A stretch of DNA of 64,000 bases from Paralichthys olivaceus (taxonomy: Eukaryota; Chordata; Actinopteri; Pleuronectiformes; Paralichthyidae), in assembly GCF_024713975.1 (NCBI RefSeq), contig NC_091114.1, forward strand, positions 11,566,001 to 11,630,000, in the 5' to 3' direction. The first letter of the stretch is position 1. Each line of letters starts with the position of its first letter. A program made the translations under genes and the position numbers. Below are positions 25,369-46,232 of the stretch, in pieces. The notes below the pieces were generated by a model. The model was not told where the DNA came from and searched no databases. It worked only from the letters and a program-made list of their open reading frames with translations.

Positions 25369-28300
25369 CTACAATATAGTTTGTTTTTTGCCTTTTATCA
25401 TTGAATGAAAATTCTGAAATGGATAAACTCTGATGTAGCGAGCAGGCGGGTGGAAAGCAGGCTGGAAAGCTGCCATTGCTCTGGATGTCCTTTTGGCAGC
25501 CGGTGTGGTCCGGAGCGCTGTGGTAGGCCTGACGGTTGTGGTCTGTGGAGCTTCTGCACAGGAACACAAACAAAGCTCAAAAACTACAAGGAATGTTGGA
25601 GGACTGATAACCGATGAGGTCCATCAGGTGACCCCCCTACTGTACCTGTGGTGGACTGCGAAGTGTGGATGATGTCGCCGATGCCGGCCGTGTCAGAATC
25701 AAACTTGTACACAGAGAAGAGGCGATGGAGCCCAGCCAGAGGGTACGAACACTGCACTATCAACCTGGAAGAAAAGGATTGATGGATCCATGGCGGTAAT
25801 TCAAAGGAATTTAAATAGTAAAGATGTGATACACACCTCTCAGTGATTGACTCGGTGGCCTCCTCGCTCTCACTTAAGTCCGTCTTGCTGTAGAAAATCT
25901 CATTTTGATAGATCACACTTTCCTTCTTAAGCTAAAAAGGTGTAAATAAAAGAAAAAGTGAGTATTTACCCATCTTTTCTTCAATCATTTAACTTATAAA
26001 CTCCAGGCAGGGTTAATTTTTTCTAGAGACGAGCTTTAGTTTAATTGGCATGAGCACAACCTTGACTGTGGATCCACAGCTGTTGAGAGGGAAAGAGAAG
26101 AGAGCTCTGGTGTCATCTGCTTCTTTGGGTCCACAGAATGTGTCCAGAAGGTTGCTTCTTGCAGGGATTTCTCCACTTGGGCTGACCAGAGACAAGTTGG
26201 CCAGCACAGTCATCCTGCCATCAGTGGAACACACTGCAGAGAGACGAATAGTAAAAAAAAAAAAATCATCTGCGTGTCAAGTCCACAATTAATCCAGTTA
26301 AGGACAGGACATTCTTACCAATAAATTCAGTAGCAGTGAATGGACAAGTCTTGACAGCTGAACTCAGGACCTCTGATGTTTCCTGATCCTTCACCAGAAT
26401 CTCAAAAGTACCAAGGAAGCCCTTCAAACCAAAGTTCTGCAAATACAAAAAAATGTTTACTCCCAGTACAAAGATTTGTTCCATTAACAAATTGCAGATT
26501 CATTAAAAGTGCAATTGTCCTCATCCTACCTTGTACTCGTATCCATGAGTGAAGAGCGGCACCTCGAGCAGCAGACTCTGGCTGTCGTTGGTCATGATGT
26601 AGCCGTGCTGGGTTGCAAGTTCTGGCGCCAGCCGGTCAGAACCGATACTGATGTACCACAGGTAGTCAAAAGGCCGGTGGTCCAGTTTGAAGCTGATGCC
26701 AGACTCAGAACAGACCGTGTCAAACTCTGGAGGAGCTGATGGATAAAGTAGAATGAATAACTCTATTTTTCAATTGGTTTGACAGTAAAAATACGAGGTT
26801 TGTGACTTACAGATGTCTGATAGTGCCATGACTGAAGTCAGGTGGAAATACAACTCATTTTCAGGCAGAACGGTCAGTGTGTAGACAATTTTCAGCATGT
26901 GCTTCATAACTTGATCTTCTTTAGAGAACTAGAAGAGAGAAAATATAACTAGAAAATACATTCCCTGCTTAAAATTGCTGAAAATGCAGATTTCAAAACA
27001 GTTGTTCACACACTATTTACTGACCTCAATTGTTAGATAGTATCTTATAATGCGTAAAAGAAACAATCATACCGAAGACCTTTTACCTGATTCTTGACAA
27101 CAGGGTCACCAAAAGGCACCGTCAGAGTGTAGCCATGGGTGTTGTTGGGATGAACGACTTTGGTGATAGAGTAGCCACTTGTATTTGTAAACGGAGAGGC
27201 ACACGTGTGCCCATTCAGCTCAACTGCGGACAGCTCAATGTCATCGAGGACATCTCCGAGGTAGATGGTGAACATGTGCTCTTCAACAACAGTTCGGTTT
27301 TCAGTGAAGAGGCGACGCGGCAGCATGGGAGTGGCCAGTGCCCTGTGAAACCTCAGTCTGGTCTCCGCGAGATCCTCATCCACAAAGATTTGCTCCAAGT
27401 AGAGGTTGAAGACATACAACTCGTGGAGGCCACCAGTCACAAAGCTCTGCAAGATATGACAAGTTTAAAATTCAGGTCAATAGTTTTGTTCTATTGCTTT
27501 TCTTAAATGCTACTAAAGCAAAGAAAGCAGCACACTCACATTAATAATACGCCTGGCTGCTGTAAATATTTAATGCATTACAATACAACAGAATTGTAAA
27601 AATGTGTATTCATATCAGCCATCAGGGGGTGCTCAAGGCTCTTTGGCTTGAGTTTCATGGGAGCTGCCATGCTGTCTATCTTTATATAATGTCTATGGTT
27701 TAACCTACCCACTTTCTAGTTTTAACAAATACACTACTGTGCCTTCTCACCTTCCTGTATCCTCCTTCAGCAGTATAGGGGATGCTGATCTCCAGTGATC
27801 TGTTGTGCTTCTCCACAATGTAGCCTCTCTCCTCTGCTGCGTTTTGCTCCATAAGTTCACCCCCGACACCGATGTTGACCTGTGTGTTGTTCAGACCAGA
27901 CGCTAGCAGGTGCAGCAATTCAGGAGTCTCCCACACCATGTATCCACTGTCATGATATGATCCTTCATCTGTGGAGATTAAAACAATGCACATTTACTTG
28001 TTCATCAAGGGAAAGCAGCCACAGTATAAAAGATTGTTATACTGACGCATGGAGCAAGCAGCCACAAGGTCGACAATGAGGACAACCCAGCTTTGTCTGG
28101 AGAACAGAGTTGCATGAGCGACCTCTACTGGAACACCCTTCACCTGGACAGAAACAGAGTCAGAACCTGTTTTGGAATAAATGCTTCACAAGACAAGACG
28201 TTACATCTTTGCTGTTTACCTTAATACTGGATGAGTCAGGTTGTCCATATGGTGTACGAAACACAAGACGTCTATCCGTCAGGTCAAACACATAGCCCTG

Positions 28301-29875
28301 CTTACGAGCTTCAGAGAGGTTCATGGGTTTCAATTGCTCTTCCTCTCTGTGAAACATCACCTGCCAGTCTGAAGCAGCTGAAGCTTGGGCCTGGAATATA
28401 ATAAATATATACAAGTGGCTGCTGAAGATAAAAAACTCAGTAACATTCAACCAGGTTTTAACATACAGGCTTTTCAGCATTCCAGTCATCACTCTTCTCT
28501 CCAGATGGACAGGCCACCTCACTCCTCACAGACACCTATAGAGAAATCAAAATTAGTTAACGTCTGAATACGTAATAAAAAGTGTTCAAAATATAAAACA
28601 AGCTTACTTCCATGTAGTTGGCCTCACAGGTAATTTCTCTTGGAGACCAGGCCAGAGAGGGAGAACAGCTTTTGTTCAAGACATAGGTGACCTCCTTTCC
28701 TTCATGCTTTGCTATCAGGTTGAAGTTGAATGTGAAAACCTCATCGTCCTGAAAGAGCGAAGAAAGTTATAAATAGGGAGGATGGCTACCATTTTGTTCC
28801 CATTAGCCACAGAATGCCTGTATTTTTTTGTGTGTGTTTGAATGTACTTTGTTGTCAGTGTGACAGCTGAAGTAAGAGGCTCGGAGCTCCACTTGGCCTG
28901 GTAGAGGGAGAACGGTGTAGCCACACTCGGCTGAATACTGCTGAGTGATTGGGTAAACACCTGTTCCATCTGAAAGAAATGGAAAGTAGTTTAAAAACTG
29001 CATAATTTTTAAATCAGTTTCTGCAAAGTTAAATCTAGGGTTTGTTTTTGCAAAAAAGGTGTTTTATAGTTCAAGAGTAACATTTCTTCTCTTCCGCTCA
29101 AGATTAGAGTTGAAATAAATGATCATGTAGAGTAATTTAATAGGTGTCAGGATTATGTGAAGCATGGTTTGATGAAAAAGCAAATTTAGATCCCTGTAAT
29201 GGTTCCTTGCAGCAAAAGAGGGGGGTGCAACTCTACCAATAATCAAAACCAGCCTGTACAGCCCCCCCAAAAATCATACCATCACATTGAATAAATAAAA
29301 TCTACAGTTTTAAAAAGATAATTGAGTTGTTGGTTTTCTTGATTCAATGTAATTCAGACAAAATATGTTTACTTTAGCTATCAGCTACTGGTATTATCTG
29401 ACAATTCAAAGAAAGTGATTTTTCCTGAGGTATATCAAGCAATTATTAATTGCTAAGAAATAAAAATATAATAATCCAGTATTTGACGCTGGGCCCTGTT
29501 GGATTAACCCAAAATTACGCCCTAATGAAACAGTTCCGGACTCACCTACAGCCTCAAAGCGAGGTTCCTCTCCAGTGAAGGAAATATCAACAGCTATCTT
29601 GAAGTAGCGATCAAGACACTCCGTACGATGAATTCCTGTATGAACAAACATGTTTACGTCTCTACAATCTCCTAATTCTTACAAGCCTACACAGATTTAA
29701 TTTAATTACCGTCAGGGATGTCATCTGATTTTGCAGGCAACAATACAAACAGGAGTAAGGCTATGCTGCAAGACAAATACACACAATTTACACAACTTGA
29801 CACTTCTGAATGTCAGTTGTAAATATGACCCTGTTTATTTGCCACCAATCCAACTCACCGAAACCCAAAAGACAT
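25369..29875 (-). CDS. zpax: ZPAX-type egg-envelope protein, gene A, 784 aa
   Basis: A secreted egg-coat (vitelline envelope) protein of the ZPAX family. Exons in order: 29859-29875, 29710-29765, 29546-29635, 28848-28969, 28608-28748, 28467-28535, 28220-28390, 28047-28143, 27751-27968, 27087-27446, 26811-26928, 26530-26735, 26319-26436, 26061-26233, 25837-25931, 25646-25764, 25369-25553. All joins are in frame. A signal peptide (MSFGFRIALLLFVLLPAKSD) precedes repeated beta-sandwich-like ectodomain segments. Near the end is a ZP-N-like module with four cysteines in CSTDGRM, DTFCGP, NSCGS and VQCSYP. No ZP-C half and no membrane segment follow. Unlike its neighbours, the 27087-27446 exon is a fusion of two exons (intron absent). 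The last exon may be spliced further: an acceptor-like CAG lies at about 25312. The 5' end faces gene B across a shared promoter. Confidence 0.85.
27590..27715. mobile_element. Short non-autonomous element fragment in a gene A intron
   Basis: The intron between exons 9 and 10 of gene A is longer than those of B and C (about 300 versus 71 bases). The extra sequence contains CATCAGGGGGTGCTC and TATCTTTATATAATGTCTATGG, a pattern remembered from abundant fish non-autonomous elements. Its ends were not delimited. Confidence 0.45.
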
Positions 29876-30309
29876 AGTTGCCAATGTGTTGGCAGTGTCT
29901 AAAGCTAGCCTGGCTGCTAGAAAAACTACACCTGCTACCACAAGCTGAATCACTTGCTTGATATAAACGGATCACACTGGCACCATGTGGTTCTGTGTCC
30001 TTCACCTGCTTTTATAAGTTATTAACTTGACCTCATGAGGTTGGACGTGAAGTCAACTCCAACCTGATCAGCTGCTGGTGATTGGACGTCACTGTGATTG
30101 CCAATGAGCTGCACATGTGTCACCTGGAGGCCTCTGATTAGCTGGTGAATGAAGTGACCTATAAAGGCAGGTTTAAGGAGACAGAACAACATGGTGCCAG
30201 TCCGATCAGGTTGTATCAAGCAAGTGTTTGACATTAGCTTGTGTTGGTCAGCAGGTGTAGTTTGCTAGCAGCCAGGCTAGCTTTAGACACTGCCAACACA
30301 TCAGCAACT
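29876..30309. promoter_or_regulatory. Divergent (bidirectional) promoter of ZPAX genes A and B
   Basis: This 434-bp block separates the two start codons. It carries a minus-strand TATAAAA (30010-30016) for gene A and a plus-strand TATAAAG (30160-30166) for gene B, each about 135-150 bases from its ATG. The two flanks are imperfect mirror copies: both contain GGTGCCAGT, ATCAAGCAAGTG and a leader with GCTAGCTTTAGACACTGCC. Between the TATA boxes lie E-boxes CAGCTG (30069), CACATGTG (30112) and CACCTG (30121), a CCAAT near 30101 and GACGTCA near 30085. E-boxes bound by FIGLA control ZP genes in vertebrate oocytes, so oocyte-specific use is a reasonable inference. Confidence 0.7.
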
Positions 30310-33300
30310 ATGGCTTTTTGCTTCAGCCTTGGGTGAGACTCTTTGATTATCATTTACAAGCACTTTGTTGACCTGTTGCTTGATTTATTTACACGTGGGT
30401 TTTGTCTTTCAGGTTCGCCCTGCTCTTGTCTATGTGGTCAACTGCAAAATGTGACCAGATTCCCAGTGGTAAGAGTTAAAGGCTGCAGACACATTTATCT
30501 CAAACCATTGGCATACATTAAGCTCTCATTGTTTGTTCATACAGGAGTTCATATGGAGTGTCGTGATCGCTACTTCATGATAGCTACTGATCTCTCATTT
30601 GCTGGGAATGAAGCCCGCTTTGAGGCTGTTGGTGAGTCCTGCACCTTTAACCCCTACAGCAATCTTTACTATGTCCCACGGGTGGAGGAAGCAATGAACC
30701 CCCACCCAATGAATCTCTATGTCCATTTTTAGATTGAAGTTGAAATGGGACATCTGTAACCTTTCACAGAGGAGTGCAATAAGAGTTTGAGCCTCAAACT
30801 AATGTTTCTCTTGCAGATGAAACAGGCATTTACCCCATCACAAAGCAGAATGCAGCTGTGTGTGGATATACTGTCAGTGTTCTCCTTAACGGCAATGTGG
30901 AGCTCCGGGCCTCTTACTTCAGCTGTCAGGTTGACAACAAAGTAGGCTATGATTTATCCAAACAAAGGCAATTACTCTAAATGCAGGACATGTGGCTGAC
31001 TCTCCTTGAAATTTCCTGTTTCTGCATTATTTTTTCAAGGATGATGAAGTTTTCACATTCAGCTTCAACCTGATTGCAAACCATGAAGGAGAGGAGGTCA
31101 CCTATGTTTTAAGTAAGACCTGTTCTCCCGCTCTGCCCTGGTCTCCGAGAGAAGTTACCTGTGAGGCCAGTTACATGGAGGTGTGCTTAGTTACATTTTA
31201 ATATTTATAATTTAGAACTATCTTGGCTGCTTGCTTACCATGATCCTCCATAGGTGTCTGTAAGGAGTGATGTGGCGTGTCCAACTGGGACAAAGAGAGA
31301 CGACTGGAATGCTGCTGTCCAAACTGTATGTAAACCCTTTTGCTCTCTCGGAGATTTGAAAGCAAAGTTTTAAATGGCTGTTAGTGTTTTTTTGTTTTTG
31401 TAAACCACCAGTGTTTTAAACAATCTTCCCAGGCATATGCTTCAGCCACGTCAGACTGGCAGGTGATGTTTCAGAAAGCGGAGGAGCAGCTGAATCCCAT
31501 GGAACTGTCTGAAGCTCACAAGCAGGGCTATGTGTTTGACCTGACAGAGGGACGGCTTGTGTTTCGTGCACCATATGGACAACCTGACTCATTTAGCTCT
31601 GAGGTAAACCACAGCCGTTTATCTAGTTCATAGGATTTGATAATTCCTCAACACTAATTGTATTCACTGTACAGTGCCTGTCTTGTGAAGCATTTACTCC
31701 AAAGCAATTGACTTGCATCTCTCCCCAGGTGAATGGTGTTCCAGTAGAGGTCATCCATGCAACTCTGTTCTCCAGACAAAGCTGGGTTGTCCTCATGGTT
31801 GACCTTGTGGCTGCTTGCTCCATGTGTCAGTATCACTATATTTTATGCAGTGGCTTCTTTCCCTTGACGAACAAGTAAAGGTTTTATATTGGTGTCTTCT
31901 CCACAGCCAATGGATCGTATGATGAGGGTGGATACATGTTGTGGGAGACTCCTGTGGTGTTGCAACCGCTGGTGTCTGGTCTGACCAACACACAGGTCAA
32001 CATCGGTGTCAGTGGTGAACTTGTGGCGCAGCCTGTTGCAGAGGAGAGAGGCTACAATGTGGAGAAGCACAATGGCTCAGTGGAGATCAGCATCCCCTAT
32101 AATGCTGAAGGAGGATACAGGAAGGTGAGGTATAGAGGAGCATATCAGTTGTGTTTATTCTGACATGATGGTGTGTTAAACAAAATATTTTTCAGAGCTT
32201 TTTGTCTGATGAACTCTATGAGTACTACATCTTCCATCTCTATCTGGAGCTAATCTCAGTGGATGAGGATCATGTTGACTCCAGAATTCGCTATCACAGG
32301 ACAATTGCAACTCCTCTGCTGCCATGTCCTGTTTTTACAGAGAACCGTAAGTTTATCTTTGACTTAACATTTATTAAAACGAGCTCCATCTAAACGTCTC
32401 TTTTATTTCAGGAACAGTCCTCGAGGAACGAGTATTCACAATCTACCTGGGAGATGTTCCTGAGGATGTTGTGGTCTCTGCTGTTCAGCTGAATGAACAC
32501 AAATTTATAACCAGAAATGAGAGAAGCCAGAGCCTCACAAAGGTTGTTCATCCCAACAACACCCATGGCTACACTCTGAAGGTGCCTTTTGATGACTCTG
32601 TTGTCATACAGAAGGTAAACTGTCTCTAAACCTCAGGCTGGTTTTATAAATGGTGCTGTCGTCCATCTAAATCTGTAAGAATCTGTATTGTTCTGTCTGC
32701 AGTTCTCTAAAGAAGATTCAGCTATGAAGCACATACTGAAGGTCAACTTCACACTGACAGTTCTGCCTGAGAATGATTCTTATTTCTACCTGACCTCAGT
32801 TATGGCACTATCGGATGTCTGTAAGTCACAAACCTTGTATTTTTACTCTGTCAAACCAAAAAGAATTGAGTTATTCATTCTACTTTATCCATCAGCTCCT
32901 CCAGAGTTTGAGGCTGTCTGTTCTGAGTCTGGCATCAGCTTCAAACTAGACCACCGGCCTTCTGACTATCTGTGGTACATCAGCATCGCTTCTGACGTGC
33001 TGACGCCAGAACTGGCAACCAAGAACGGCTACATCATGACTAACAATAGCCAGAGTCTGCTGATCGAGGTGCCACTCTTCACTCTAGGATTTGTGTACGA
33101 GGTATGATGAGGAAAACTACTACAGACTCATACTGCAGGGAGCCAGTTGTTTTGAACATGTCAAGCTATAACCAAGCTGTGTTTTGCAGGACATTGCTCT
33201 GAAAGGATTCCTTGGTACTTTTGAAATCCTCATTCGAGATCATGAAACATCAGAGGTCCAGAGTTCAACCATGAAGACGTGTCCATTCACAACTGCTGAG

Positions 33301-34258
33301 TTCATTTGTAAGAGCGTCCTGTCTTTTACTATGAGAACAAGTGGGCTTTGACACATGAACTAAAAGTCGTCTCTCTGCAGTGTGTTCCACTGATGGCAGG
33401 ATGACTGTGATGGCTGACTTGTCTCTGGCCAGCTCAAGTGGAGGAATCCCTGCTAGAAGCAACCTCCTGAACACATACTGTGGACCCAAAGAAGCAGATG
33501 ACACCAGGGCCCTCTTCTCTTTCCCCCTCAACAGCTGTGGATCCATAATAAAGGTATAGTTGATCATTACAGTCTAACATAACAGTAGCATTCAATCAAC
33601 TTGACTTTAACATTACTGTACTCAAAATTCTTGTCTTTCCAGCTTGGTAAGGAATATGTGACATACGAAAACGAGATTTCCTTCAGCAGGAAGTTCAATC
33701 TTCAGAAAAATCCATCAGATTCCAGCGTTGAGATTGACCGGTATAAATCTCTAACCTCCTATACTTTCAGTTATTTACCCCTCTAAACTACTATAACTGC
33801 AACACTGACTGTCTTATAGGGTAAAGGTGCAGTGTACGTATCCTCTGTCTGGACTCCATCGTCTCTTTTCGGTGTACAAGTTTGATTCTGACGCAGTTGG
33901 TGTCGGCAACATTGTTCATTCTACACTCTCAAATGAAGGTACGTAGCACACTGGTCAGATTTTATTATCTCCTAAACCTCTTGATTACTGACTTTATTTG
34001 TTTATATTTCACTCTAGTTTTACAAAAACCCACAATGGAGTTCAACACAGTGTTTCGAACGCCAGTGCCTGCAACCAGACGTACCAGACCTGTGTTGGTG
34101 AAGCCTGGTCACCACCCTTCTGCTCAGCACATCAAAATGCCAACTTACTTACAGAATCTCAAAAAAAGTCAGTATTTTTAAAACTGATAATACACTTACA
34201 GTAAGAAGTGTGTTCTACAATCTATCTTCTCTTTACAGGAGCTGAAGGATCTTCATAA
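30310..34258 (+). CDS. zpax: ZPAX-type egg-envelope protein, gene B, 19 exons, 781 aa
   Basis: Egg-coat protein, the inverted near-twin of gene C. Exons: 30310-30332, 30413-30468, 30545-30631, 30817-30941, 31040-31180, 31254-31325, 31433-31603, 31729-31825, 31907-32124, 32196-32346, 32412-32614, 32703-32820, 32896-33101, 33190-33307, 33381-33553, 33643-33740, 33820-33938, 34018-34167, 34239-34258; every phase matches and the stop is TAA. It starts with a signal peptide (MAFCFSLGFALLLSMWSTAKC). The ectodomain follows, and a ZP-N-like module has cysteines in CSTDGRM, NTYCGP, NSCGS and VQCTYP. The protein then runs into a basic tail (RRTRP, NLKKRAEGSS) without ZP-C or a membrane anchor. AATAAA lies at 34314. 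Introns are mostly under 200 bases. Confidence 0.87.
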
Positions 34259-34313
34259 GTCAAAGTGAATCTGGGTTTGTTTTAGATTGACAATCCTTTT
34301 AAATGCAATTGTT

Positions 34314-34319
34314 AATAAA
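34314..34319 (+). terminator. zpax: Polyadenylation signal of ZPAX gene B
   Basis: AATAAA lies 56 bases after the gene B stop codon, followed by a poly-A run at 34329-34340. Confidence 0.65.
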
Positions 34320-34344
34320 ATGGTTTATAAAAAAAAAAAACTCA

Positions 34345-36300
34345 CGCCTTCTATGTTTCTTACTTGAACCTGTAATCAAACCCTTGAGTAGCTGATTCAA
34401 AGTGAGAAAGTAAAGCTTGAACTGATTTTATTCAGAAAAATGTAAGATGCCAATACTGAATTTAAATGTGACTTCTTAAAGATTTGTGATTCTTGAGGTA
34501 ATGTCAATTTTGGTGATTGCATGCAAGATTTCTTCCTGGCAGATAAGTGGATGATAAATGGCTCTTATGTGAAATTTTTTTTTTTTTTTTAAAAAGGCAC
34601 ATGGATCTTATTGCTAAGTTCCAAGTGGTGTTAGCAACTTGAGTGAGGGGAAATATAGTTGTAGTAATATTGCTGTTGTATCTGTCATGAGTACTAGACT
34701 GCATTCAGGCACAATTAGACCATTTGAGCTTGAACTGCATGGTGCAGTAATTTGAAATCCTTGTGTGCTGTTTTGTTCGACCATGGGACTAGAGGCAATC
34801 TGATGCCTGTATTCGGGACTATAGAAGTGATTGGTCAGAAAATCTCATAGTGCTGTAACTTGCAACCAACTAAGTTACAATTAACCAATGGTTTGTCATG
34901 TATCAATGTCATGAAATTCAGTGGTGCTGTGATTCTCTCATTAGCCTGGCTACAGTGCTGAAGAGAAACCTGGGATGGTTTTTATTTTCAATGTGAAGCA
35001 ATAGGCAGCTCTTGCTCGCATACCTCAACAGTATCTTTTCAGGATTCGTGGTTTAACAGTTGAGTGCCACTTTTCTAGTATTCTTAACACTTGTTTTAAT
35101 TTGTGTGTTGGAATTGTACCAGGGAACTAATCTGTTTGACATTCTTCTTTTTATTACACTATGGAGTCTAATGTTAATTGAGTTTATAGAGCTACCTACA
35201 AGGTCAATCTCTGGAGCTAGGGTTTTAAAATTCCTGTTTTATTGAGGGATGACACTGAGTTAAATTAAGTTACGGCATTCTGGTAGACATCAGGAAAATG
35301 AGTTTTTCATTAATGCATTCAGTCTGATAAGTTTTTTTTGACACCATGTAATAGTACAAGGTGAAGTGTGTGAATACGAGTGGGTTTGTGTACAGACTGA
35401 AAGCAAATGAGTAATGTTGAAATAAACAACATTAATAGCTTGAATTTATATAGCACCCTTCAAGAGACCTAATGCTTTACATGTCCATGGGGAGAAAAGA
35501 AAGTAACATGAATATTAAAGTCACTGAATAACTTTTTAGAACTAGGCTTGATGAAAACAGTTTGTAAAAATGCAGTTACTTTAACTGAACTTTAATTCAG
35601 TCAAGAAAATTCAGAATAAGCCCCAGGAGCACAGAAAAATACAGCATGTGATTGGCTGTTGTGATTTCTTGGGTGGTTAAGAGTCTTGGCAGACCAGAAC
35701 AAAACTTTTAAATGAGTTATAGTTTGAGTAATTTATAATCAGGAGTTAAAAAACAAACTCCACCTCATTGCCACAGGACTCATCAATTGCAGTGTTTACA
35801 CTTGGCTCAGATAATTGGGACCATTTTGTACCTTTTAAAACTACATCAAGGTAAATGATTCAGAGGATCCTAAAATCCAAATCTCTCTTTTCTGAATTAG
35901 TTACTTGAAAACTATCATTGCAGATCTTAGAAATGACTTGTAAAACCAATTTAGTTACCATAAAGCTGCAGCTTAGTCATTGGTGGAATAGTATTCATTG
36001 TGGCTTTTAGTTAAGTATTCTATGGACTGCAAAGTTTCAATAGCAACTAGCTGAACCATAAACTGAAGTGGATATTACCCCTGACCAAAGCTTCCAGAAC
36101 CAGAAGGGCTACTGCTTAGCACAACTGTTAGAATTCTTATTTTTAAAAGCTGTTTTATAGACAAACACATTTTAATTCATCTGTTCAGCATTACTCTTTA
36201 AGTGGCTCACAATACAAGCTGTGATGTCAGTTCCATACTTCTCCCAGGAGACTGTACCCACTCAAAGTTACATAGAGCAAGAAGACATAAGAGTATTTTT
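34345..36300. other. Unique spacer between the inverted ZPAX genes B and C
   Basis: About 2 kb of AT-rich sequence forms the centre of the inverted duplication. No convincing open frame was found. A LINE/SINE-type tail fragment (TTTATATAGCACCCTTCAAG) lies at about 35446-35480. No left-right symmetry was seen inside, so the arms end near the two polyadenylation signals. Confidence 0.6.
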
Positions 36301-36308
36301 AAACAAAC

Positions 36309-36314
36309 TTTATT
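36309..36314 (-). terminator. zpax: Polyadenylation signal of ZPAX gene C
   Basis: TTTATT on the plus strand is AATAAA on the minus strand, about 20 bases beyond the gene C stop. Confidence 0.6.
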
Positions 36315-36331
36315 AATTCATTAAATCACAA

Positions 36332-39300
36332 TCAAACAGATGGTGTCATTTTAGCTTGCAATGGATTTCTGGCTCCTGTGAAGAGAATTCAAGGTTAATG
36401 AACGTCTTAGAATTCACACTTAAACTACATTTTAAATAACTGACCTTTCGAAAGATTCTTTAGATACGTGGACACTTTAATGTGTTGAACAGGCTTCACA
36501 AACATGGGATTTGTGCGTCTGGTGGGGGGCAGTGGAGTTTGCAGCACTGTGTTGAACTCCATGGTGGGTCGCTGTACAACTAGAATACAATATGACCAAA
36601 TAAGTCAGGGAGCAAGCTGGAGAAAGACGACATTTAAGCAATTTGACGAGTTAACCACCTACTGTACCTTCAGTAGAACGAACAATGTTGCCGATGCCGG
36701 GAGTGTCAGAATCAAACTTGTACACCGAGAACAGACGATGGAGCCCAGCCAGAGGATACGTACATTGCACTTTAATCCTAAAGGACAAATTCAGTGTTGC
36801 AGTCATGAGTAATTCAGTGAGGGATGAATAAATGAAAGTTGATGATTTATACCCGTTTAACTGATTGCTGGTATCTGATGGATTTTTCTGAAGACTGAAC
36901 TTCTTGCTGAAAGAAATCTCGTTTTGGTACGTCACATATTCCTTTCCGAGCTGGACAGACAAGAATTTAAAGTAAACGATAAGCATATTCATGTGAAGGT
37001 AAATTACAGTTACAGCCACATTTGTAATCAGTTCTACCTTTATTATGGATCCACAGCTGTTGAGGGGGAAAGAGAAGAGGGCCCTGGTGTCGTCTGCTTC
37101 TTTGGGTCCACAGTATGTGTTCAGGAGGTTGCTTCTAGCAGGGATTCCTCCACTTGAGCTGGCCAGAGACAGGTCGGCCATCACAGTCATCCTGCCATCA
37201 GTGGAACACACTGCAGAGAGACAACTTTTAGTTCATGTGTCAAAGCCCACTTGTTCTCATAGTAAAAGACAGGACGCTCTTACAAATGAACTCAGCAGTA
37301 GTGAATGGACACGTCTTCACGGTTGAACTCTGGACCTCTGATGTTTCATGATCTCGAATGAGGATTTCAAAAGTACCAAGGAATCCTTTCAGATCAATGT
37401 CCTGCAAAACATAGCTTGGTTATAGCTTGACATGTTCAAAACAACTGGCTCCCTGCAGTATGAGTCTGTAGTAGTTTTCCTCATCGTACCTCGTACACAA
37501 ATCCTTGAGTGAAGAGCGGCACCTCGATCAGCAGACTCTGGCTATTGTTAGTTATGATGTAGCCGTTCTCGGTTGCCAGTTCTGGCGTCAGCAGGTCAGA
37601 AGCGATGCTGATGTACCACAGGTAGTCAGAAGGCCGGTGGTCTAGTTTGAAGCTGATGCCAGACTCAGAACAGAAAGCCTCAAACTCCGGAGGAGCTGAT
37701 GGATAAAGTAGAATGAATAACTCAATTCTTTTTGGTTTGACAGAGTGAAAATACAAGGTTTGTGACTTACAGACATCCGATAGTGCCATAACTGAGGTCA
37801 GGTAGAAATAAGAATCATTCTCAGGCAGAACTGTCAGTGTGAAGTTGACCTTCAGTATGTGCTTCATAGCTGAATCTTCTTTAGAGAACTGCAGACAGAA
37901 AAATACAGATTCTTACAGATTTAGATGGACGACAGCACCATTTATAAAACCAGCCTGAGGTTTAGAGACAGTTTACCTTCTGTATGACAACAGAGTCATC
38001 AAAAGGCACCTTCAGAGTGTAGCCCTGGGTGTTGTTGGGATGAACAACCTTTGTGAGGCTCTGGCTTCTCTCATTTCTGGTTATAAATTTGTGTTCGTTC
38101 AGCTGAACAGCAGAGACCTCAACATCCTCAGGAACATCTCCCAGGTAGATTGTGAACACTCGTTCCTCGAGGACTGTTCCTGAAATAAAAGAGACGTTTA
38201 GATGGAGCTCGTTTTAATAAAGGTTAAGTCAAAGATAAACTTACGGTTCTCTGTAAAAACAGGACATGGCAGCAGAGGAGTTGCAAGTGTCCTGTGATAG
38301 CGAATTCTGGAGTCAACATGATCCTCATCCACTGAGATTAGCTCCAGATAGAGATGGAAGATGTAGTACTCATAGAGTTCATCAGACAAAAAGCTCTGAA
38401 AAATATTTTGTTTAACACACCATGTCAGAATAAACACCACAACTGATATGCTCCTCTATACCTCACCTTCCTGTATCCTCCTTCAGCATTATAGGGGATG
38501 CTGATCTCCACTGAGCCATTGTGCTTCTCCACATTGTAACCTCTCTCCTCTGCAACAGGCTGCACCACAAGTTCACCACTGACACCGATGTTGACCTGTG
38601 TGTTGGTCAGACCAGACACCAGCGGTTGCAACACCTCAGGAGTCTCCCACAACATGTATCCACCCTCATCATACGATCCATTGGCTGTGGAGAAGACACC
38701 AATATAAAACCTTTACTTGTTCGTCAAGGGAAAGAAGCCACTGCATAAAATATAGTGATACTGACACATGGAGCAAGCAGCCACAAGGTCGACCATGAGG
38801 ACAACCCAGCTTTGTCTGGAGAACAGAGTTGCATGGACGACCTCTACTGTAACACCGTTCACCTGGAGAGAGACACAAGTTAAAACACTGTAGTTACCGG
38901 TTGATGGTACAATTAGGGTTGAGGAATTAAACACTATGAACTAGATGATAAAACTGCTGTGGTTTACCTCAGTGCTCAATGAGTCAGGTTGTCCATACGG
39001 TGTACGAAACACAAGCCGTCCCTCTGTCAGGTCAAACACATAGCCATGTGTGCGAGCTTCAGAGAGGTTCACAGGAATCATCTGCTCCTCCTCTCTCTGA
39101 AACGTCACCTGCCAGTCTGAGGTTGCTGAAGCATAATCCTGGGAAGATGAATCATTTTAAAACAGCTGTGGCCTGGATTCTACTCATACTAACAGTCAAT
39201 TGACAGATTCAAACATACAGGCTGTAGAGCAGTATTCCAGTCATCTGTTGTCTGAGCTGGACAGGTAACTGTATTCCTCACAGATACCTGAGCAGAAACC

Positions 39301-39580
39301 ACAATTAGCAAGCATTTTAAACTGATCCCAGAATGCATTACTACAAAAGTTACTACAAAGTTTAAACAAACTTACTTCCATGTAGTTGGTCTCACACGTA
39401 ACCTCTCTGGGAGACCAGGGGAGCAATAGAGAACAGGTCTCATTCAAAGCATAGGTGATTGACTGACCATAATGGTTTGTGATCAGGTTGAAGTTGAATG
39501 TGAAAACGTCATCACCCTAAAGACACAGTAGAAAATGTTGGTGGGTTTTCTAAATCCATTCCTATTTGGCTGCAGAAGAC

Positions 39581-39632
<52 letters not shown>

Positions 39633-40166
39633 TGTTTTCAGTCTGACAGCTGAAATACGAGGCTCGGAGCTCCACGTAACCCTGAAAAGGGAGAACACTG
39701 ACAGTGTAGCCACACTCAGCTGCATACTGCTCAGTGATGAGGTATGCGCCTGTTCTATCTGGAAGAGAAGCAGATCATGAACTTCATTCAAGATTCACTA
39801 TTGGGTCTTCACACTGGACTTCCTGGGTGTACAGGACTCACCAACAGCCTCAAAGTGAGGTTCTACTCCAGCAAAGGAGAGATCAACAGCTATCATGAAG
39901 TAGCGATCATGACACTCTGTACGATAAACTCCTGTATGAACAAACAATGAGAACTTAATGTATGCCAATGGTTGGAGATAAGTGTGTCTGCAGCCTTTAA
40001 CTCTTACCACTGGGAATCTGGTCACATTTTGCAGTTGACCACATAGACAAGAGCAGGGCGAACCTGAAAGACAAAACCCACATGTAAATAAATCAAGCAA
40101 CAGGTCAACAAAGTGCTTGGAAATGATAATCAGAGAGTCTCACCCAAGGTTGAACCCAAAAGCCAT
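36332..40166 (-). CDS. zpax: ZPAX-type egg-envelope protein, gene C, 19 exons, 782 aa
   Basis: Inverted duplicate of gene B with the same exon plan. Exons in order: 40144-40166, 40008-40063, 39842-39931, 39631-39758, 39376-39516, 39219-39287, 38968-39138, 38766-38862, 38467-38684, 38245-38395, 37977-38179, 37771-37888, 37490-37695, 37284-37401, 37038-37210, 36853-36950, 36668-36777, 36445-36579, 36332-36375. The phases join without error. It has a signal peptide (MAFGFNLGFALLLSMWSTAKC) and the same four-cysteine ZP-N-like module near the end. There is no ZP-C and no anchor; the tail ends QAKMTPSV, unlike gene B. A (CA)n tract directly follows the exon 4 splice donor. It is nearly identical to B from exon 8 to exon 15 and in the promoter, but clearly diverged elsewhere. 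Confidence 0.87.
39583..39628. repeat. (GT)n microsatellite at the exon 4 donor of gene C
   Basis: About 22 GT units (CA on the transcribed strand). The tract begins right behind the GTAC donor of gene C exon 4, so intron 4 opens as a CA repeat. Confidence 0.9.
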
Positions 40167-40450
40167 AGTTGCTGATGTGTTGGCAGTGTCTAAAGCTAGC
40201 CTGGCTGCTAGCAAACTACACCTGCTGACCAACACAAGCTAAAGTCAAACACTTGCTTGATACAACCTGATCGGACTGGCACCATGTTGTTCTGTCTCCT
40301 TAAACCTGTCTTTATAGGTCACTTCATTCACCAGCCAATCAGAGGCCTCCAGGTGACACATGTGCAGCTCATTGGCAATCACAGTGACGTCCAATCACCA
40401 GCAGCTGATCAGGTTGGAGTTGACTTCACGTCCAACCTCATGAGGTCAAG
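40167..40450 (-). promoter_or_regulatory. Promoter of ZPAX gene C
   Basis: A minus-strand TATAAAG (plus 40310-40316) lies about 145 bases before the gene C ATG. CCAAT and E-box sequences (CACATGTG near 40358, CAGCTG near 40401) follow in the same order as at gene B. The sequence mirrors 30020-30309 with few differences. Confidence 0.65.
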
Positions 40451-40507
40451 TTAATAACTTATAAAAGCAGGTAAGGGAGACAGAACCGCATGGTGCCAGT
40501 GTGATCG
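40451..40507 (+). promoter_or_regulatory. Orphan, truncated copy of the gene A promoter
   Basis: TATAAAA at 40460-40466 points to the right and is followed by a leader (GCAGGT..AGGGAGACAGAACC..GGTGCCAGTGTGATC). This matches the gene A promoter at about 29967-30016 read on the minus strand. The match stops at about 40507, before any start codon, so this is a promoter without its gene. Confidence 0.7.
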
Positions 40508-41138: not shown

Positions 41139-44100
41139 CTACAAATGCACCCTCCATTTTCTTTGTCCTGGACAGGGAGGAATTTATGTATTACACATTT
41201 TTACAGATAACTCTCACAAATCATGAGTAGATCAAAATTATTTTAATACTACTACACACACATATTTACCTGTGTTTGCTTCCCTGCGTGTGCGATTGAC
41301 CGGCATCATGGGTGAAAGGTCCAGATGTGAATACACAGGATACTGGAGCGACAGGGTGCTGCTCTTGTTTGCAGGGTAGCGACACTGGATCGTCAGTCTG
41401 CAACAGACAAGACGTGACGCTAACATAACACTAATGTGGCTTTTCTAAAAGCAAAAAGAGTTCAGGGTTGTTTCCTCACCTGTACGGAGAATCTCTGTGT
41501 ATAACAGGATCATCCAGAGGCAGAAAATCTTGGTTGTAGCGGATCTGGTTTTCATAAACCAGGAAATTCCCCTCAGTCTAAAGAAACAGGAGGAGATCAG
41601 AGCAGAGGCCCGACAGTATGTTTTTGTGAGTGGAGGTTGAATAATGAAATTCCCTCACAGTGACGATCGTCCCACAGGAGTCCAGGCTGAAGTTGAACAG
41701 AGCTCTGGCACTGTCTGTCTCCATGGGAGCACAGCTGGGGTCCAGCAGAGTGGTTCGGTTGGGGTGAGTCGGGGGGATGGTGTGGGTGGTGTCGACCACG
41801 GCCATCATCCTCCCTTCTGGCAAACACACTGTCAGAGACAAACTGAGTGTGAGGGATGTTATGAAAAACCACTAAAACATAGATTAAGCTGCAGTTTGAG
41901 CTTCTGTCTTATACCTAAAAGTTCTGTCACAGCAAACGTGCATTTGAGGAGAAGGCTGTCCCGTACTTCCAGAGACTCAGCATCCACAACGAACACATTC
42001 ACACCGGCAACGACACTCCACAATGTCAACTCCTACACGGGAGAAAAAGAGAAAACACTTGATGGCGTCATTGCATCTGACTTAAATCGATGGACATGAG
42101 TGATTAAACCTTATTCAACTTATCCAACTGAAATAAGATAAAAGTCAATATGGTCCTGAAGATGAAAACAAAGATAAAATGTAAATCACAAGGGCATGAA
42201 CGTTGAAAAGTTAATTATGTTTGTTTGCAGGGGGGTTGGTTGACCTCATAGTTCATCCCAGGGCTGTACAGAGGGATCTCCACAGTTAAGTAGTCGTCCT
42301 GAGCCTCCACTACGAACCCGCCCATCTCCACCAGCTCCCAGTCGAGCTTCCGGGTGCCGAGGTAGAGCTCCCACTGCAGCTCGGCCTGGGCCCCGTGATG
42401 CAGCAGCACCAGCAGGCTGCTCGCTGTGCACTTCCCCTCCAGTCTGGGTGAATCTGGAGCTGCAGCAGGAGAGGAGGTCAGACTTTATTAACTACTACTG
42501 TTTAGGTTATTTAGCAAATAGAATTTCACACCATTTACTATCAGTTTAATGCACTTTTATATTATTGTTACATAATTTCTGTTCATATCATAATGAGATG
42601 AACAGACAATCAATGGCCTTATGTTATCTACAACTAGAATAACCATGAAGAATCACCAGCTCTCTTTCTCTTATGTTATGGTTTTAAATAATGGCCAGAA
42701 ATGAAGCTGACCTTTGACCTTTTGTGGATACAATTTCATCACTTCCCATCATTTTATCGTATCAGACATTTTTCTGTAAATATTTCAAAATTAGAGAGTG
42801 ACGTGATGTCAGAGTGACCTTTGAAATTCCATCGAGCTGTACTGAGTTAACTAATAATCAATCAAAAAGAAAGATAGGAACATATGCATGTACATATATA
42901 AGGATAGAAAACCCACAACAAAAAGCATCCAGCTACAGTGATGACATATATACACCTACAGTCCAGTGACATACACTTATTATTGGTCTGAATCATCAGT
43001 TTGGTGATGGTAGATGACAAAAAACAAAAATAAAGAATAACTCACCCGTGTACTCGACGCTATGCTCAGTGGAGACTTGATGGTACAACACCTCTTTATT
43101 GGGTGAGATGTTAAGAATGAAGATGAAAGTGATGCTGTACGTCTTATAACCAGCACCTATGAACTGGGATCAGATCCGTACATCGTCTCACATGGTTTTT
43201 TCTTCTCCAAATGACAGAGACATATTGTGTTTCGTGTTTCTCACCTCTGGGATTACTTTTGGGTGTGACAACAGGAAACTGAGCTGGAAGGAGACGCTCC
43301 CGTTGACGTAGGAGAGTCTGGAAACCGCAACGTCTGCGTCACTCCGCGTTTGGTGGCTTTGGGTCCAGGTTAAAATGTCACCACCACCATCTATAGTCAC
43401 CTTCTGAATGGAGACGTCAGGTGCAAACGGGCCTAAGGTAACAGAAAATAATCCCTCGGATGTTTCTGTGAAGAGAGACAGATGTATAATAGTGATACTT
43501 TCCTTTTCTGTGTAATTTAATGTATTTAGTTTGTTTTTATCAACAGAATTTGGATTTAACTGAAATCTTAAAATCCTTACTGCTGGTTAAGAAAAGAGTT
43601 TGAGGGATGAGTGGAGTCTTCAGGAGCCTGAGGGAGCGGAGCTGTGTGAGAGGCCAACGGTCATCCTCCCACTGACTCATCAAAAACAGATCAACAGACA
43701 TGTGCTGTCTGTACTGTCCCCTGACAACACCGCTCTGAAAAAGAAATCACAGCAGCCGGAGTATCAGGGAACAACAGGGAAACGAAGAAAGATCAAATAT
43801 TAATTGACATAAAATAAAAGACATTTTAAAAGGATAAACAATAAATCAAATTTAACAAAAAGATATATCTATGCTAACAGTATTACTTTAGGTACTGGTG
43901 ACATCCAATCTTTTAAGGTACAATGAAAAAGTAGATTAATATATAATATATATGTATAATGCCAGAGTAAAGAAATTAATCAAATACACAGAAAAATCTA
44001 TAAAAAACAGACAAATGCACTTGCGGTGTGTATTCAGTATATATTTATACTGCATATATTTATCCATGTACCTTGATGTGTCCACCAGAGGCTCCTGTAG

Positions 44101-46232
44101 GAACCCTGACCTCCACTCTCCCCTCCTTTATGCCGATCTTGTATCGTCTCTCTTTAGCATCAGACTCGCTCAGAGCTTGGCCGTTGACTCCCACCCTCAC
44201 GCCTCTGTCCCTGAACTGCCCGTGAACTAGAGGAGAAAGAATGAAAGGGAGAGTCCACAACAGGTCCGACCCATCTGCTGTGGCCTCACCTGGGGGAGAG
44301 GAGAGAGAAATTTGAATCCCTTCGCTGTGGTATTTTACCAAATAGCCCAGTACTAGTAAACTGTACTAACTCAGTACACATGCGACAGTGGTGTCAACAG
44401 CGAGGAAGTTGCTCTGGAGTCTGTAAAGTGTGGTTGCACTGACAATCTCCACATCTACTCCCTTCACCTGGAAAAACAAAAAAAAGTATTTGTGAAAGTA
44501 CAAGCGAACGATGCTGGTTTGATCCTGAGTGAAGGATATTTCCTCCGAGTACCTCTCTGATGTATGAGAGAGGGGAGGAATAGGGACAGCGGAGGGTGAG
44601 ACGTGAGCCACTCATTGAGACGTGGTAGCTCAGAGCAGCAGCTTCAGTCAGGGACAACACTGTGGCTCTTTCTGACGGCCGGTCCGCTCTGTGGAACATC
44701 ACAGCCATCTCTGCCTGAACGAGGGACATCCAATCAATTTAACTGACACTATTTTAAAAGACATAAAGCTTAAAAACATCTTCACGCTGGTCGAAAATTT
44801 CCTAGCCAAACTCCCCTTTTTTCTCTCGTCTTAGGAATCCTGTGTCATGATTGGTGACTCAAATAAATGTCAGAGCATCTACCAACACTTACCTTCCTGT
44901 CACTGTCATATTTCACAGGCAGGACAGGTAGATAGAGGGACACCTAGAGAGAAAATAAAATTCATATTTACAGCTTCATCCATTCTGCAGCATGTGTTGG
45001 AAAAGTTAGACTAGAAGTTCTGCCCTGCTGTTTTATGCCGTTAACTGTTTGGAATCACCTCCATGTAGTTTTCCTCACACACGATCTCTCTGGAGCTCCA
45101 TTGCTCCTGGAGAGAGCAAGTGAGCTGGAGGGGGAAAAGCCCCAACACCTTCCCATCTGCCTGGAGGTTCACAAACCAGACATGCAGGTGATAGTCTGAT
45201 CCCGTCTGTAGGGTGGATACACAGTTAAAGAGGAAGGGCACAATGTATAACATATTAAAGCACAAAATGTCAGTCGAAAGTACCTGGGTGTGGACGTGAC
45301 AGGCCAGGAAGGAGGCACGAAACACCAGGTCTCCGACATCATTGATCAGGGAGGTGTAACCACAGAGAGCGGCCTCCTGCTCAGACAGGATGTGGTATCC
45401 AGACCGGTCTATTGATGACAGACGTTTACAGTGAATGAAAGTGAAAAGAAAACAACAAATCTGACTGAGAACTAAGGTGCATACCCTCGAAGTCAAAACG
45501 GATCATTGAGCCGAGGAAGCTGGACTTGACAGACAACCAAAAGTGACGCTCCAGGCATTTGGTCTGAAAAGCTCCTGGAAAAATGATTAATGCCATTTTT
45601 TTTTTTTTTGCCAGATTCATATATTTCAGCCTACGTCAAGATTCACTGCAGAAATTCAGTATTACCTCAAACAAGGATTAACTGCAGTGGAACTATTCAT
45701 TTGATTCTTATGGAAAAATTTGATTACTTGAGTTATTTTGCATGCACACATACACTGTCATAACATTATGTAGAAAAATATTAATATAATACTATGAATA
45801 TCTTAAAATTAAGTTTAGGCATATGTCCTGTCCCTACACATACAAATAATAAAACATTTTATTTATATGCATTTTAACAGTGCTTGAAGACACTTTACAT
45901 AGATTTTTAAAACCAAAAGCAAAATATAAGAAGACTAAATTTACAGAGTGGGTCTGATGTGTTGTTACATTCACTGAATCCTCTACACAATGTGATGTTC
46001 TGTTGAGTCTTTGCTTTTATAACGTTGCAGACTGCATTTTTTAATATTGTGTTGTTGACCTCCACATCCTGTGCATTATCTCACAGATAAGGAATATTTC
46101 CCCTGTGGATCCTGTTTCATTTATCTGAACATCTGTACAATAAGGAAACAGGTATTTTGTCCTCACTGTTTCCTGTAGTCACTGGACTGGAGACACTCAG
46201 AGGTGAGAGCAGGAGCAACACAACACTGAAAC

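What the first reader, a model, noticed from the sequence alone, without database searches (positions are those of the whole stretch)
29960..40507. Inverted ZPAX duplicate with a mosaic of identical and diverged blocks (gene conversion)
Genes B and C face each other tail-to-tail around a 2-kb unique spacer. By eye, exons 3-7 differ by about 13-20%, with different exon lengths and introns. Exons 8-15 with their introns (31729-33553 versus 37038-38862) are almost identical; intron 8 (31826-31906 versus 38685-38765) shows no difference in 81 bases, and exon 15 shows 3 in 173. Exon 16 drops again to about 85%. A second near-identical block runs from the promoter to intron 2. Introns as similar as exons argue against selection alone and fit repeated conversion between inverted arms. 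Such a palindrome is known mainly from sex chromosomes, so an egg-coat example is notable.
Basis: partly seen in the sequence, partly recalled or inferred. Interest (0 to 1): 0.85.

Follow-up and report, generated by a model that had tools for sequence, protein, structure and literature searches.

The report
Egg-coat gene copies overwrite each other
In the olive flounder two mirror-image egg-coat genes are nearly identical in two blocks and very different elsewhere because one copied DNA onto the other, and in many related fishes the same central part of these proteins shows the mark of repeated copying while the end stays different.

Summary
The window is olive flounder. Genes B and C are intact zpax4-type egg-coat genes, tail to tail, 2 kb apart. 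Promoter to intron 2, and exons 8-15 with introns, are 97-98% identical; exons 3-7 and 16-19 differ by 13-55%. Synonymous divergence is 0.041 in exons 8-15 against 0.38-0.41 in exons 3-7 and 16-17. Halibut's protein follows B outside the block (84/81% against C's 70/69%) and is 82% from both inside, which fits an older duplication and a recent B-to-C conversion. AU tests alone do not reject a B+C clade outside the block.

The wider result: a third copy, A, faces B head to head. In exons 16-18 A-type and B-type zpax4 form two deep groups across 30 percomorph species holding both. In exons 13-15 copies mostly group by species: own paralog closest in 14 of 17 families, against 0 of 17 in exons 16-18; at least 17 label changes are forced. 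The switch lies at the exon 15/16 border, where the flounder B/C block ends. This suggests a recurrent conversion corridor. For other fishes only proteins were compared.

The parts
30310..34258 (+). gene B, zpax4-like, 19 exons, 781 aa, intact
   Evidence: identical letter for letter to Paralichthys olivaceus protein P0001
36332..40166 (-). gene C, inverted copy of B, 19 exons, 782 aa, intact
   Evidence: identical to P0003
25266..29875 (-). gene A, A-type zpax4, head to head with B, 18 exons (lacks intron 10), 792 aa
   Evidence: 787 of 792 residues equal to nr LOC109634918 (P0056)
29970..30545 (+). conversion tract 1 in B (promoter to intron 2); 97.2% to C 40506-39931; outer 34 bp look unconverted
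39931..40506 (-). conversion tract 1 in C
31754..33556 (+). conversion tract 2 in B (exons 8-15 with introns), about 98% to C
37035..38837 (-). conversion tract 2 in C
30545..31753 (+). unconverted exons 3-7 and introns of B (73% to C; A, B, C about equally far from each other)
33557..34258 (+). unconverted exons 16-19 of B (70% to C, 55% to A)
32818..33084 (+). older A~B/C tract: end of exon 12, intron 12, exon 13 (19 of 257 sites at which B equals C differ from A; intron 12 A-B 4 of 73)
33367..33545 (+). older A~B/C tract: end of intron 14, exon 15 (12 of 175 sites at which B equals C differ from A)
29862..30318 (.). mirror-image promoter region shared by A and B: inverted halves 84% alike, TATA-like boxes at 30004-30016 (-) and 30160-30172 (+); that they act as promoters is inferred
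40460..40472 (+). outward TATA-like box upstream of C, counterpart of A's promoter half; the homology ends at 40506 and no A-like gene follows
34259..36331. spacer between the two 3' ends (no match elsewhere in the window at the settings)

Best explanation
B and C are an older inverted duplicate pair of zpax4 egg-coat genes. After their exons, introns and ends had diverged widely, ectopic gene conversion overwrote two stretches of C with B sequence: promoter to intron 2, and exons 8-15. Since then both have gathered mutations equally. This is one case of a wider process: A-type and B-type zpax4 copies of percomorph fishes have repeatedly converted each other in the same corridor. The corridor centres on exons 13-15 (the module before ZP-N and the first half of ZP-N) and stops at the exon 15/16 border, beyond which the two types keep old, distinct C-termini. 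Shown: the mosaic, the tenfold dS drop, equal mutation on both sides, segment-dependent trees in flounder, and species-wise grouping in exons 13-15 with type-wise grouping in exons 16-18. Inferred: conversion as the cause in the other species (protein data only, gene order not seen), direction B to C, pairing of inverted arms as the route, and the age. Two things may limit the corridor: loss of homology in intron 15/exon 16, and selection keeping different C-termini.
For: Introns 8 and 10-14 are 97.7-100% alike and intron 9 differs by two indels, while introns 3-7 and 15-18 are 43-83% alike; dS 0.041 in exons 8-15 versus 0.384 (exons 3-7), 0.411 (16-17), 1.02 (18-19); permutation P=0.0002, introns alone P<=0.0005. 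A to B and C is 77.5 and 77.8% inside tract 2, so the tract is not slow-evolving. Derived changes 13 in B, 11 in C, 5 unpolarised of 1732 sites, symmetry P=0.84. Halibut P0004 versus B/C: 0.84/0.70 in exons 3-7, 0.82/0.82 in exons 8-15, 0.81/0.69 in exons 16-19; B+C grouped 100/100 in exons 8-15, and a clade of B with pleuronectid B-type proteins without C rejected there, p=3.5e-7. Across species: A/B label changes 1 in exons 16-18 (labels come from that segment), 26 (at least 17 forced) in exons 13-15, AU p 1.9e-89 on a quick tree; own paralog closest in both views in 14 of 17 families for exons 13-15 and 0 of 17 for exons 16-18. Flounder A-B intron 12 differs at 4 of 73 sites against 49% pooled in 12 other introns, so the old A~B tract crosses an intron.
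Against: For exons 3-7 a B+C clade is not rejected by AU (p=0.177; 0.086 without exon 7), and the tail cannot decide (p=0.498), so the age of the duplication relative to the flounder-halibut split rests on identity and bootstrap. C has a long branch, so fast evolution of C outside the tracts could mimic age. For other fishes I had proteins only: no introns, no gene order. Over exons 8-15 as a whole the own paralog is closest in both views in only 11 of 30 species by the rounded values (2 of 17 families for exons 8-12), and in the flounder itself A and B are not (0.73 against 0.76-0.77). Exons 5, 9, 11 and 12 show the pattern in a quarter to a third of the species. No reads were available to test the assembly, and the whole-genome search for further copies did not complete.
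Confidence: 0.87

Rival explanations
1. Recent duplication plus patching: C was copied from B recently, and exons 3-7 and 16-19 were later replaced from another, diverged paralog.
For: Tract 1 runs almost to the sharp end of homology at 29970/40506, as a fresh duplication breakpoint would.
Against: No donor is known: searching with C residues 24-225, every listed protein other than C itself is at most 74% identical, B being 71% and A 69% (best 120 of 291 listed). The outermost 34 bp differ at 4 sites, P=0.0066 against the tract rate. It needs two or more patches where the other scenario needs two tracts.
Confidence: 0.06
2. Selection alone: exons 8-15 are strongly constrained, or both copies evolve in parallel to match one partner.
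For: The corridor codes for folded modules of the predicted protein; egg-coat proteins can co-evolve with sperm proteins (established for abalone, PMC3567151, passages).
Against: Introns and silent sites are homogenised too; A is 22% different in the same stretch. Constraint would make orthologs as alike as paralogs, but in exon 13 paralogs average 0.93 and same-type copies of other families 0.79. Parallel adaptive change in other species is not excluded, since no intron DNA was available for them.
Confidence: 0.03
3. Assembly or annotation artefact: collapsed or chimeric copies.
For: No reads were checked; two sea bass proteins (P0050, P0055) look like chimeric models and were dropped.
Against: The window holds no N. 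Both genes are intact; copies differ by scattered substitutions split evenly between them, which collapse would not give (inference). Across the 30 species pairs exon 13 differs at one or more residues in 26, so most pairs are not one sequence annotated twice.
Confidence: 0.04

Closest known systems
LWS opsin inverted tandem pair of livebearing fishes (PMC2732921, passages read)
   Different: few species; here the corridor recurs in 14 of 17 families tested and concerns egg-coat genes
Fugu and zebrafish protocadherin clusters, regional gene conversion (PMC1852091, passages read)
   Same: conversion confined to one ectodomain region of paralogs, lineage by lineage, with raised GC3
   Different: large tandem clusters with conversion in the 3' region of variable exons; here a few whole genes with introns, some inverted; GC3 rise here inconclusive
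Saccharomyces Centroid inverted repeat (PMC9731477, abstract and outline read)
   Same: inverted gene pairs, fast evolving, reproductive, continually homogenised within species
   Different: 4-kb repeats kept almost identical and flanking a flipping 24-kb region; here only part of each gene is kept alike
Abalone VERL egg-coat repeats (PMC3567151, passages read; concerted evolution of VERL also recalled)
   Same: egg-coat protein with homogenised internal ZP-N repeats and distinct first repeats
   Different: homogenisation within one gene, not between two genes
Sex-chromosome palindromes (PMC3723533, PMC8981503; search listing and start of abstract seen)
   Same: inverted arms and conversion
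   Different: those arms exceed 99% identity; here much of the arm is free to diverge

Membership tests
ZPAX (zpax4) egg-coat proteins | ZP-N domain | tested here: met
   PF23344 at 597-694, above cut-off; choriogenin H is the one PDB sequence match (8bqu, residues 585-694, E 0.00018)
ZPAX (zpax4) egg-coat proteins | N-terminal ZP2/ZPAX-like Ig/ZP-N modules | tested here: met
   PF23736 above cut-off; best fold matches are human ZP2 N1N2N3 (8rke), though with low whole-chain TM (0.18 of query)
ZPAX (zpax4) egg-coat proteins | closest named relatives are zpax4 | tested here: met
   where relatives bear a specific name it is mostly zona pellucida protein AX 4; most are 'uncharacterized', Scophthalmus P0006 is named Y1, others ZP2 or ZP4
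canonical ZP proteins | ZP-C half of the ZP module after ZP-N | tested here: not met
   only 87 residues follow ZP-N, no Pfam match there at E<=1 (B, A) or 0.01 (C); residues 722-781 modelled at pLDDT under 50
interlocus gene conversion | silent sites and introns homogenised with sharp edges | tested here: met
   (B/C only; A-B intron 12)
interlocus gene conversion | different segments support different gene trees | tested here: met
   for exons 3-7 alone not significant
interlocus gene conversion | GC-biased tracts | tested here: inconclusive
   exon 13 has the highest GC3 of exons 3-18 in B (0.62) and C (0.65); exons 8-15 only slightly above exons 3-7
sex-chromosome-type palindrome | arms kept over 99% identical throughout | tested here: not met
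   70-73% outside the tracts
sex-chromosome-type palindrome | location on a sex chromosome | not tested
   window lies on contig C22; its status is not known from any call

The most novel reading that the evidence does not exclude
Percomorph egg coats keep two zpax4 proteins with different C-termini but a shared, species-specific central face. A conversion corridor at exons 13-15 with a fixed edge at exon 15/16 has kept the two copies in step within each species since early in percomorph history, so that a change in one copy spreads to the other, while selection against conversion protects the C-termini. Conversion would thus be the means by which an egg-coat module evolves as a unit and comes to differ between species.
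Probability: 0.35. Interest if true: 0.85.

Novelty: new variant of a known kind. Interest (0 to 1): 0.64.

Why it matters
Partial conversion between duplicates is well known, but a corridor with the same edge recurring in 14 of 17 fish families tested, in genes of the egg surface, is a natural replicated experiment on what limits conversion and whether selection uses it. It also warns that whole-gene trees of zpax4 mix two histories and will misplace orthologs and dates. In my ten literature searches no title, abstract start or passage that I looked at reports conversion in fish zpax genes; I did not read the listed papers whole, and subscription journals are mostly missing from that library.

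Tried and rejected
Whole-genome search of G000 with protein B for further copies was asked twelve times and each time the machine was busy; a region request meant to show whether the contig length equals that of the database protein's contig also did not complete. So the absence of another paralog rests on the protein search, which lists only the best 120 of 291. The ZP Pfam search of the genome listed no hit in this window, probably because the domain is split over exons.

The apparent ten mismatches in intron 9 were rejected as a diverged island: a gapped alignment shows two 3-bp indels. Gap-tolerant pairwise alignment of A and B introns gives higher figures (intron 12 70/72, but also intron 9 68/71 with a 304-base partner) and was judged inflated; the column counts of the three-way alignment were used. 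The permutation test also found A-B and A-C segments in exons 4-6 (P=0.0002 each), where about as many sites join A with B or A with C as B with C, weak A-B and A-C segments elsewhere (P=0.0026 to 0.038) and, outside the blocks, an older B-C likeness at 33620-33808 (P=0.0002); these were not followed up. Label changes on very short segments (exons 3-4 gave 21, exons 5-7 9, exons 8-9 14, exons 10-12 12, exon 13 31) are inflated by poor resolution, so the forced counts and AU tests are quoted. AU tests for exons 3-7 did not reject a B+C clade nor an A-type clade. A test of GC bias was inconclusive.

Rows used: the trees hold 36 and 30 proteins picked by hand (35 and 36 rows, then 28 and 30, after a coverage filter). 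Of 139 proteins listed, 87 of 45 species were chosen by hand (species with two or more copies, flatfish and a few others); 86 entered the tail tree. P0101, P0098, P0089 and P0110 were left unlabelled, and P0050, P0055 and P0104 dropped from then on as likely chimeras or duplicates; still held them. One search held 76, 80 and 78 rows. Species are the names printed; the grouping into 17 families is from memory, and one search does not print which 3 families fail.

Full report
What is there. The window is from the olive flounder: a protein search with my model of gene B returned a 100% match named Paralichthys olivaceus, and the models of B (781 aa) and C (782 aa) equal two flounder proteins letter for letter. 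Three related egg-coat genes stand side by side: A (29875-25266, minus), B (30310-34258, plus) and C (40166-36332, minus). A and B are head to head, B and C tail to tail. All three have intact reading frames; introns are GT-AG, save one GC-AG in A. Pfam finds ZP-N and the ZP2-type Ig domain, and where relatives bear a specific name it is mostly zona pellucida protein AX 4. A fourth, distant ZP relative lies at 41506-45584 (26-42% identity in pieces).

The mosaic is real. Between B and C, identity is 97.2% over 29970-30545, 73% over exons 3-7 with introns, about 98% over 31754-33556, and 70% in the tail. Synonymous divergence (Nei-Gojobori) is 0.384 in exons 3-7, 0.041 in exons 8-15, 0.411 in exons 16-17 and 1.02 in exons 18-19. 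Permutation of variable sites places two B-C tracts at 30180-30547 and 31825-33556, P=0.0002 each; introns alone give 31725-33556, P<=0.0005. Copy A serves as yardstick: inside tract 2 A differs from B and C by 22%, so this part of the gene is not slow; in exons 3-7 the three copies are about equally far apart (site patterns BC 117, AC 100, AB 94). Since the overwriting, B has gained 13 and C 11 changes that can be polarised by A, 5 cannot, of 1732 sites.

Old duplication, recent conversion, B to C. The halibut B-type protein (P0004) is 84% identical to B and 70% to C in exons 3-7, and 81% and 69% in exons 16-19, but 82% to both in exons 8-15, where B and C are 97% alike (per exon). So the shared block is of B type, and B is the likely donor. 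Where B and C differ outside the block, pleuronectid consensus residues match B 27 times, C 12 times and neither 14 times in exons 3-7, and 20, 6 and 1 in the tail. Trees agree in part: in exons 3-7 B groups with pleuronectids (99/96) without C, in exons 8-15 B groups with C (100/100; a B-pleuronectid clade without C rejected, p=3.5e-7), in the tail B, C and pleuronectids form one clade (100/97) whose inner order is unresolved. AU tests do not reject a B+C clade in exons 3-7 (p=0.177, or 0.086 without exon 7) or in the tail (p=0.498), so the relative age of the duplication is likely rather than proven. No listed protein other than C itself is more than 74% like C's residues 24-225 (best 120 of 291), which speaks against a patched recent duplicate. 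With the rate of 4e-9 per site per year quoted for an icefish in PMC9560024 (passages read), dS 0.041 gives about 5 million years, all sites (29/1732) about 2, and dS 0.4 about 50; these are rough.

How the pair may have arisen. A and B share a mirror-image promoter region: two inverted halves 84% alike with TATA-like boxes facing apart. Upstream of C stands the same module, including the half that in front of B serves A (box at 40460-40472), but the homology ends at 40506 and no A-like gene follows. The simplest reading is that C is an inverted copy of B taken out of the A-B context. The last 34 bp before that end differ at 4 sites, more than the tract (P=0.0066), as expected if the breakpoint is older than the tract. 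That these boxes are promoters is inferred from sequence alone.

The wider result. From the 139 proteins listed I took 87 from 45 species. In exons 16-18 they fall into two deep groups, A-type (36 rows, 96/95) and B-type, with one Myripristis and one Centroberyx row joining at the base of the A-type group; 30 species hold both types. Labels taken from that segment need, in other segments, 8 changes in exons 3-7 (at least 4 forced by strongly supported branches; AU of an A-type clade p=0.227), 10 in exons 8-12 (at least 7; p 6e-42) and 26 in exons 13-15 (at least 17; p 1.9e-89) (quick trees). In exons 13-15 the label is no more clustered than in shuffles (393 of 500 as low), in exons 3-7 and 8-12 it still is (0 of 500). 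By exon, the own paralog is closer than every same-type copy of other families in 26 of 30 (A view) and 28 of 30 (B view) species for exon 13, in 12-16 of 29 for exons 14-15, in 7-11 of 28-30 for exons 5, 9, 11 and 12, in 0-5 for exons 2, 3, 4, 6, 7, 8 and 10, and in 0 of 30, 0 of 30 and 0 of 27 for exons 16, 17 and 18. With one species per family: 14 of 17 for exons 13-15, 4 of 17 for exons 3-7, 2 of 17 for exons 8-12, 0 of 17 for exons 16-18. The difference within minus between species peaks at +0.21 (residues 510-525), is -0.02 at 646-661 and turns to -0.14 at 654-669, at the exon 15/16 border (residue 653). This is where the flounder B/C tract ends (33556). In the flounder itself the A-B relation shows the same corridor in faded form and across an intron: 19 of 257 sites over exon 12 end-intron 12-exon 13, intron 12 4 of 73, against 49% in twelve other introns. 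Exon 13 is identical in four species pairs; their exon 14 is 0.74-0.97 and their exon 16 0.31-0.43 alike, so whole-gene copying does not explain it.

The protein. The AlphaFold model (73 sequences, mean pLDDT 76) shows a row of beta-rich modules; on my reading there are six, about one per two exons, and exons 9, 11, 13 and 15 start near module starts. The corridor covers the module before ZP-N and the first half of ZP-N. The best PDB matches are the N-terminal modules of human ZP2 (8rke; E 1e-9, low whole-chain TM). After ZP-N only 87 residues follow, the last 60 modelled at very low confidence, so the usual ZP-C half is absent.

Mechanism. Inverted neighbours can pair within a chromatid or between sisters; conversion without crossover overwrites, and a crossover would flip the spacer rather than delete a gene (established recombination knowledge). 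Tracts end where homology has decayed, here intron 7/exon 8 and intron 15. Why the tail stays distinct in all 17 families tested is not shown: decayed homology, or selection for different C-termini, or both.

Verdict. The finding is true and its main interpretation holds.

Noticed in passing
29862-30318 and 40153-40506: A and B share a mirror-image promoter region with two outward TATA-like boxes; C carries the same module with an orphan outward half that has no A-like gene behind it.
   Followed up: partly
36332-40166 (gene C, exons 3-7): C's N-terminal part has no listed relative above 74% identity (best 120 of 291 hits in a 5.8-billion protein collection), while B and A have clear flatfish orthologs; C may be fast-evolving or a survivor lost elsewhere.
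   Followed up: partly
33557-34258 and P0001 residues 695-781: The flounder zpax4 proteins end shortly after ZP-N and lack a recognisable ZP-C half of the ZP module.
   Followed up: partly
27087-27446: Gene A lacks intron 10 of B and C, and its fused exon is much more diverged from B (dS about 0.83) than exons 8-9 (0.19) or 12-15 (0.33) beside it.
   Followed up: no
41506-45584: A fourth, distant ZP-type relative (26-42% identity in pieces) on the minus strand next to C.
   Followed up: no
39583-39628: A perfect GT dinucleotide repeat of 23 copies in intron 4 of C, absent from B, in the unconverted part.
   Followed up: no
3444-6407: Open reading frame of 987 aa of a non-LTR type retrotransposon (endonuclease and reverse transcriptase domains).
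   Followed up: no
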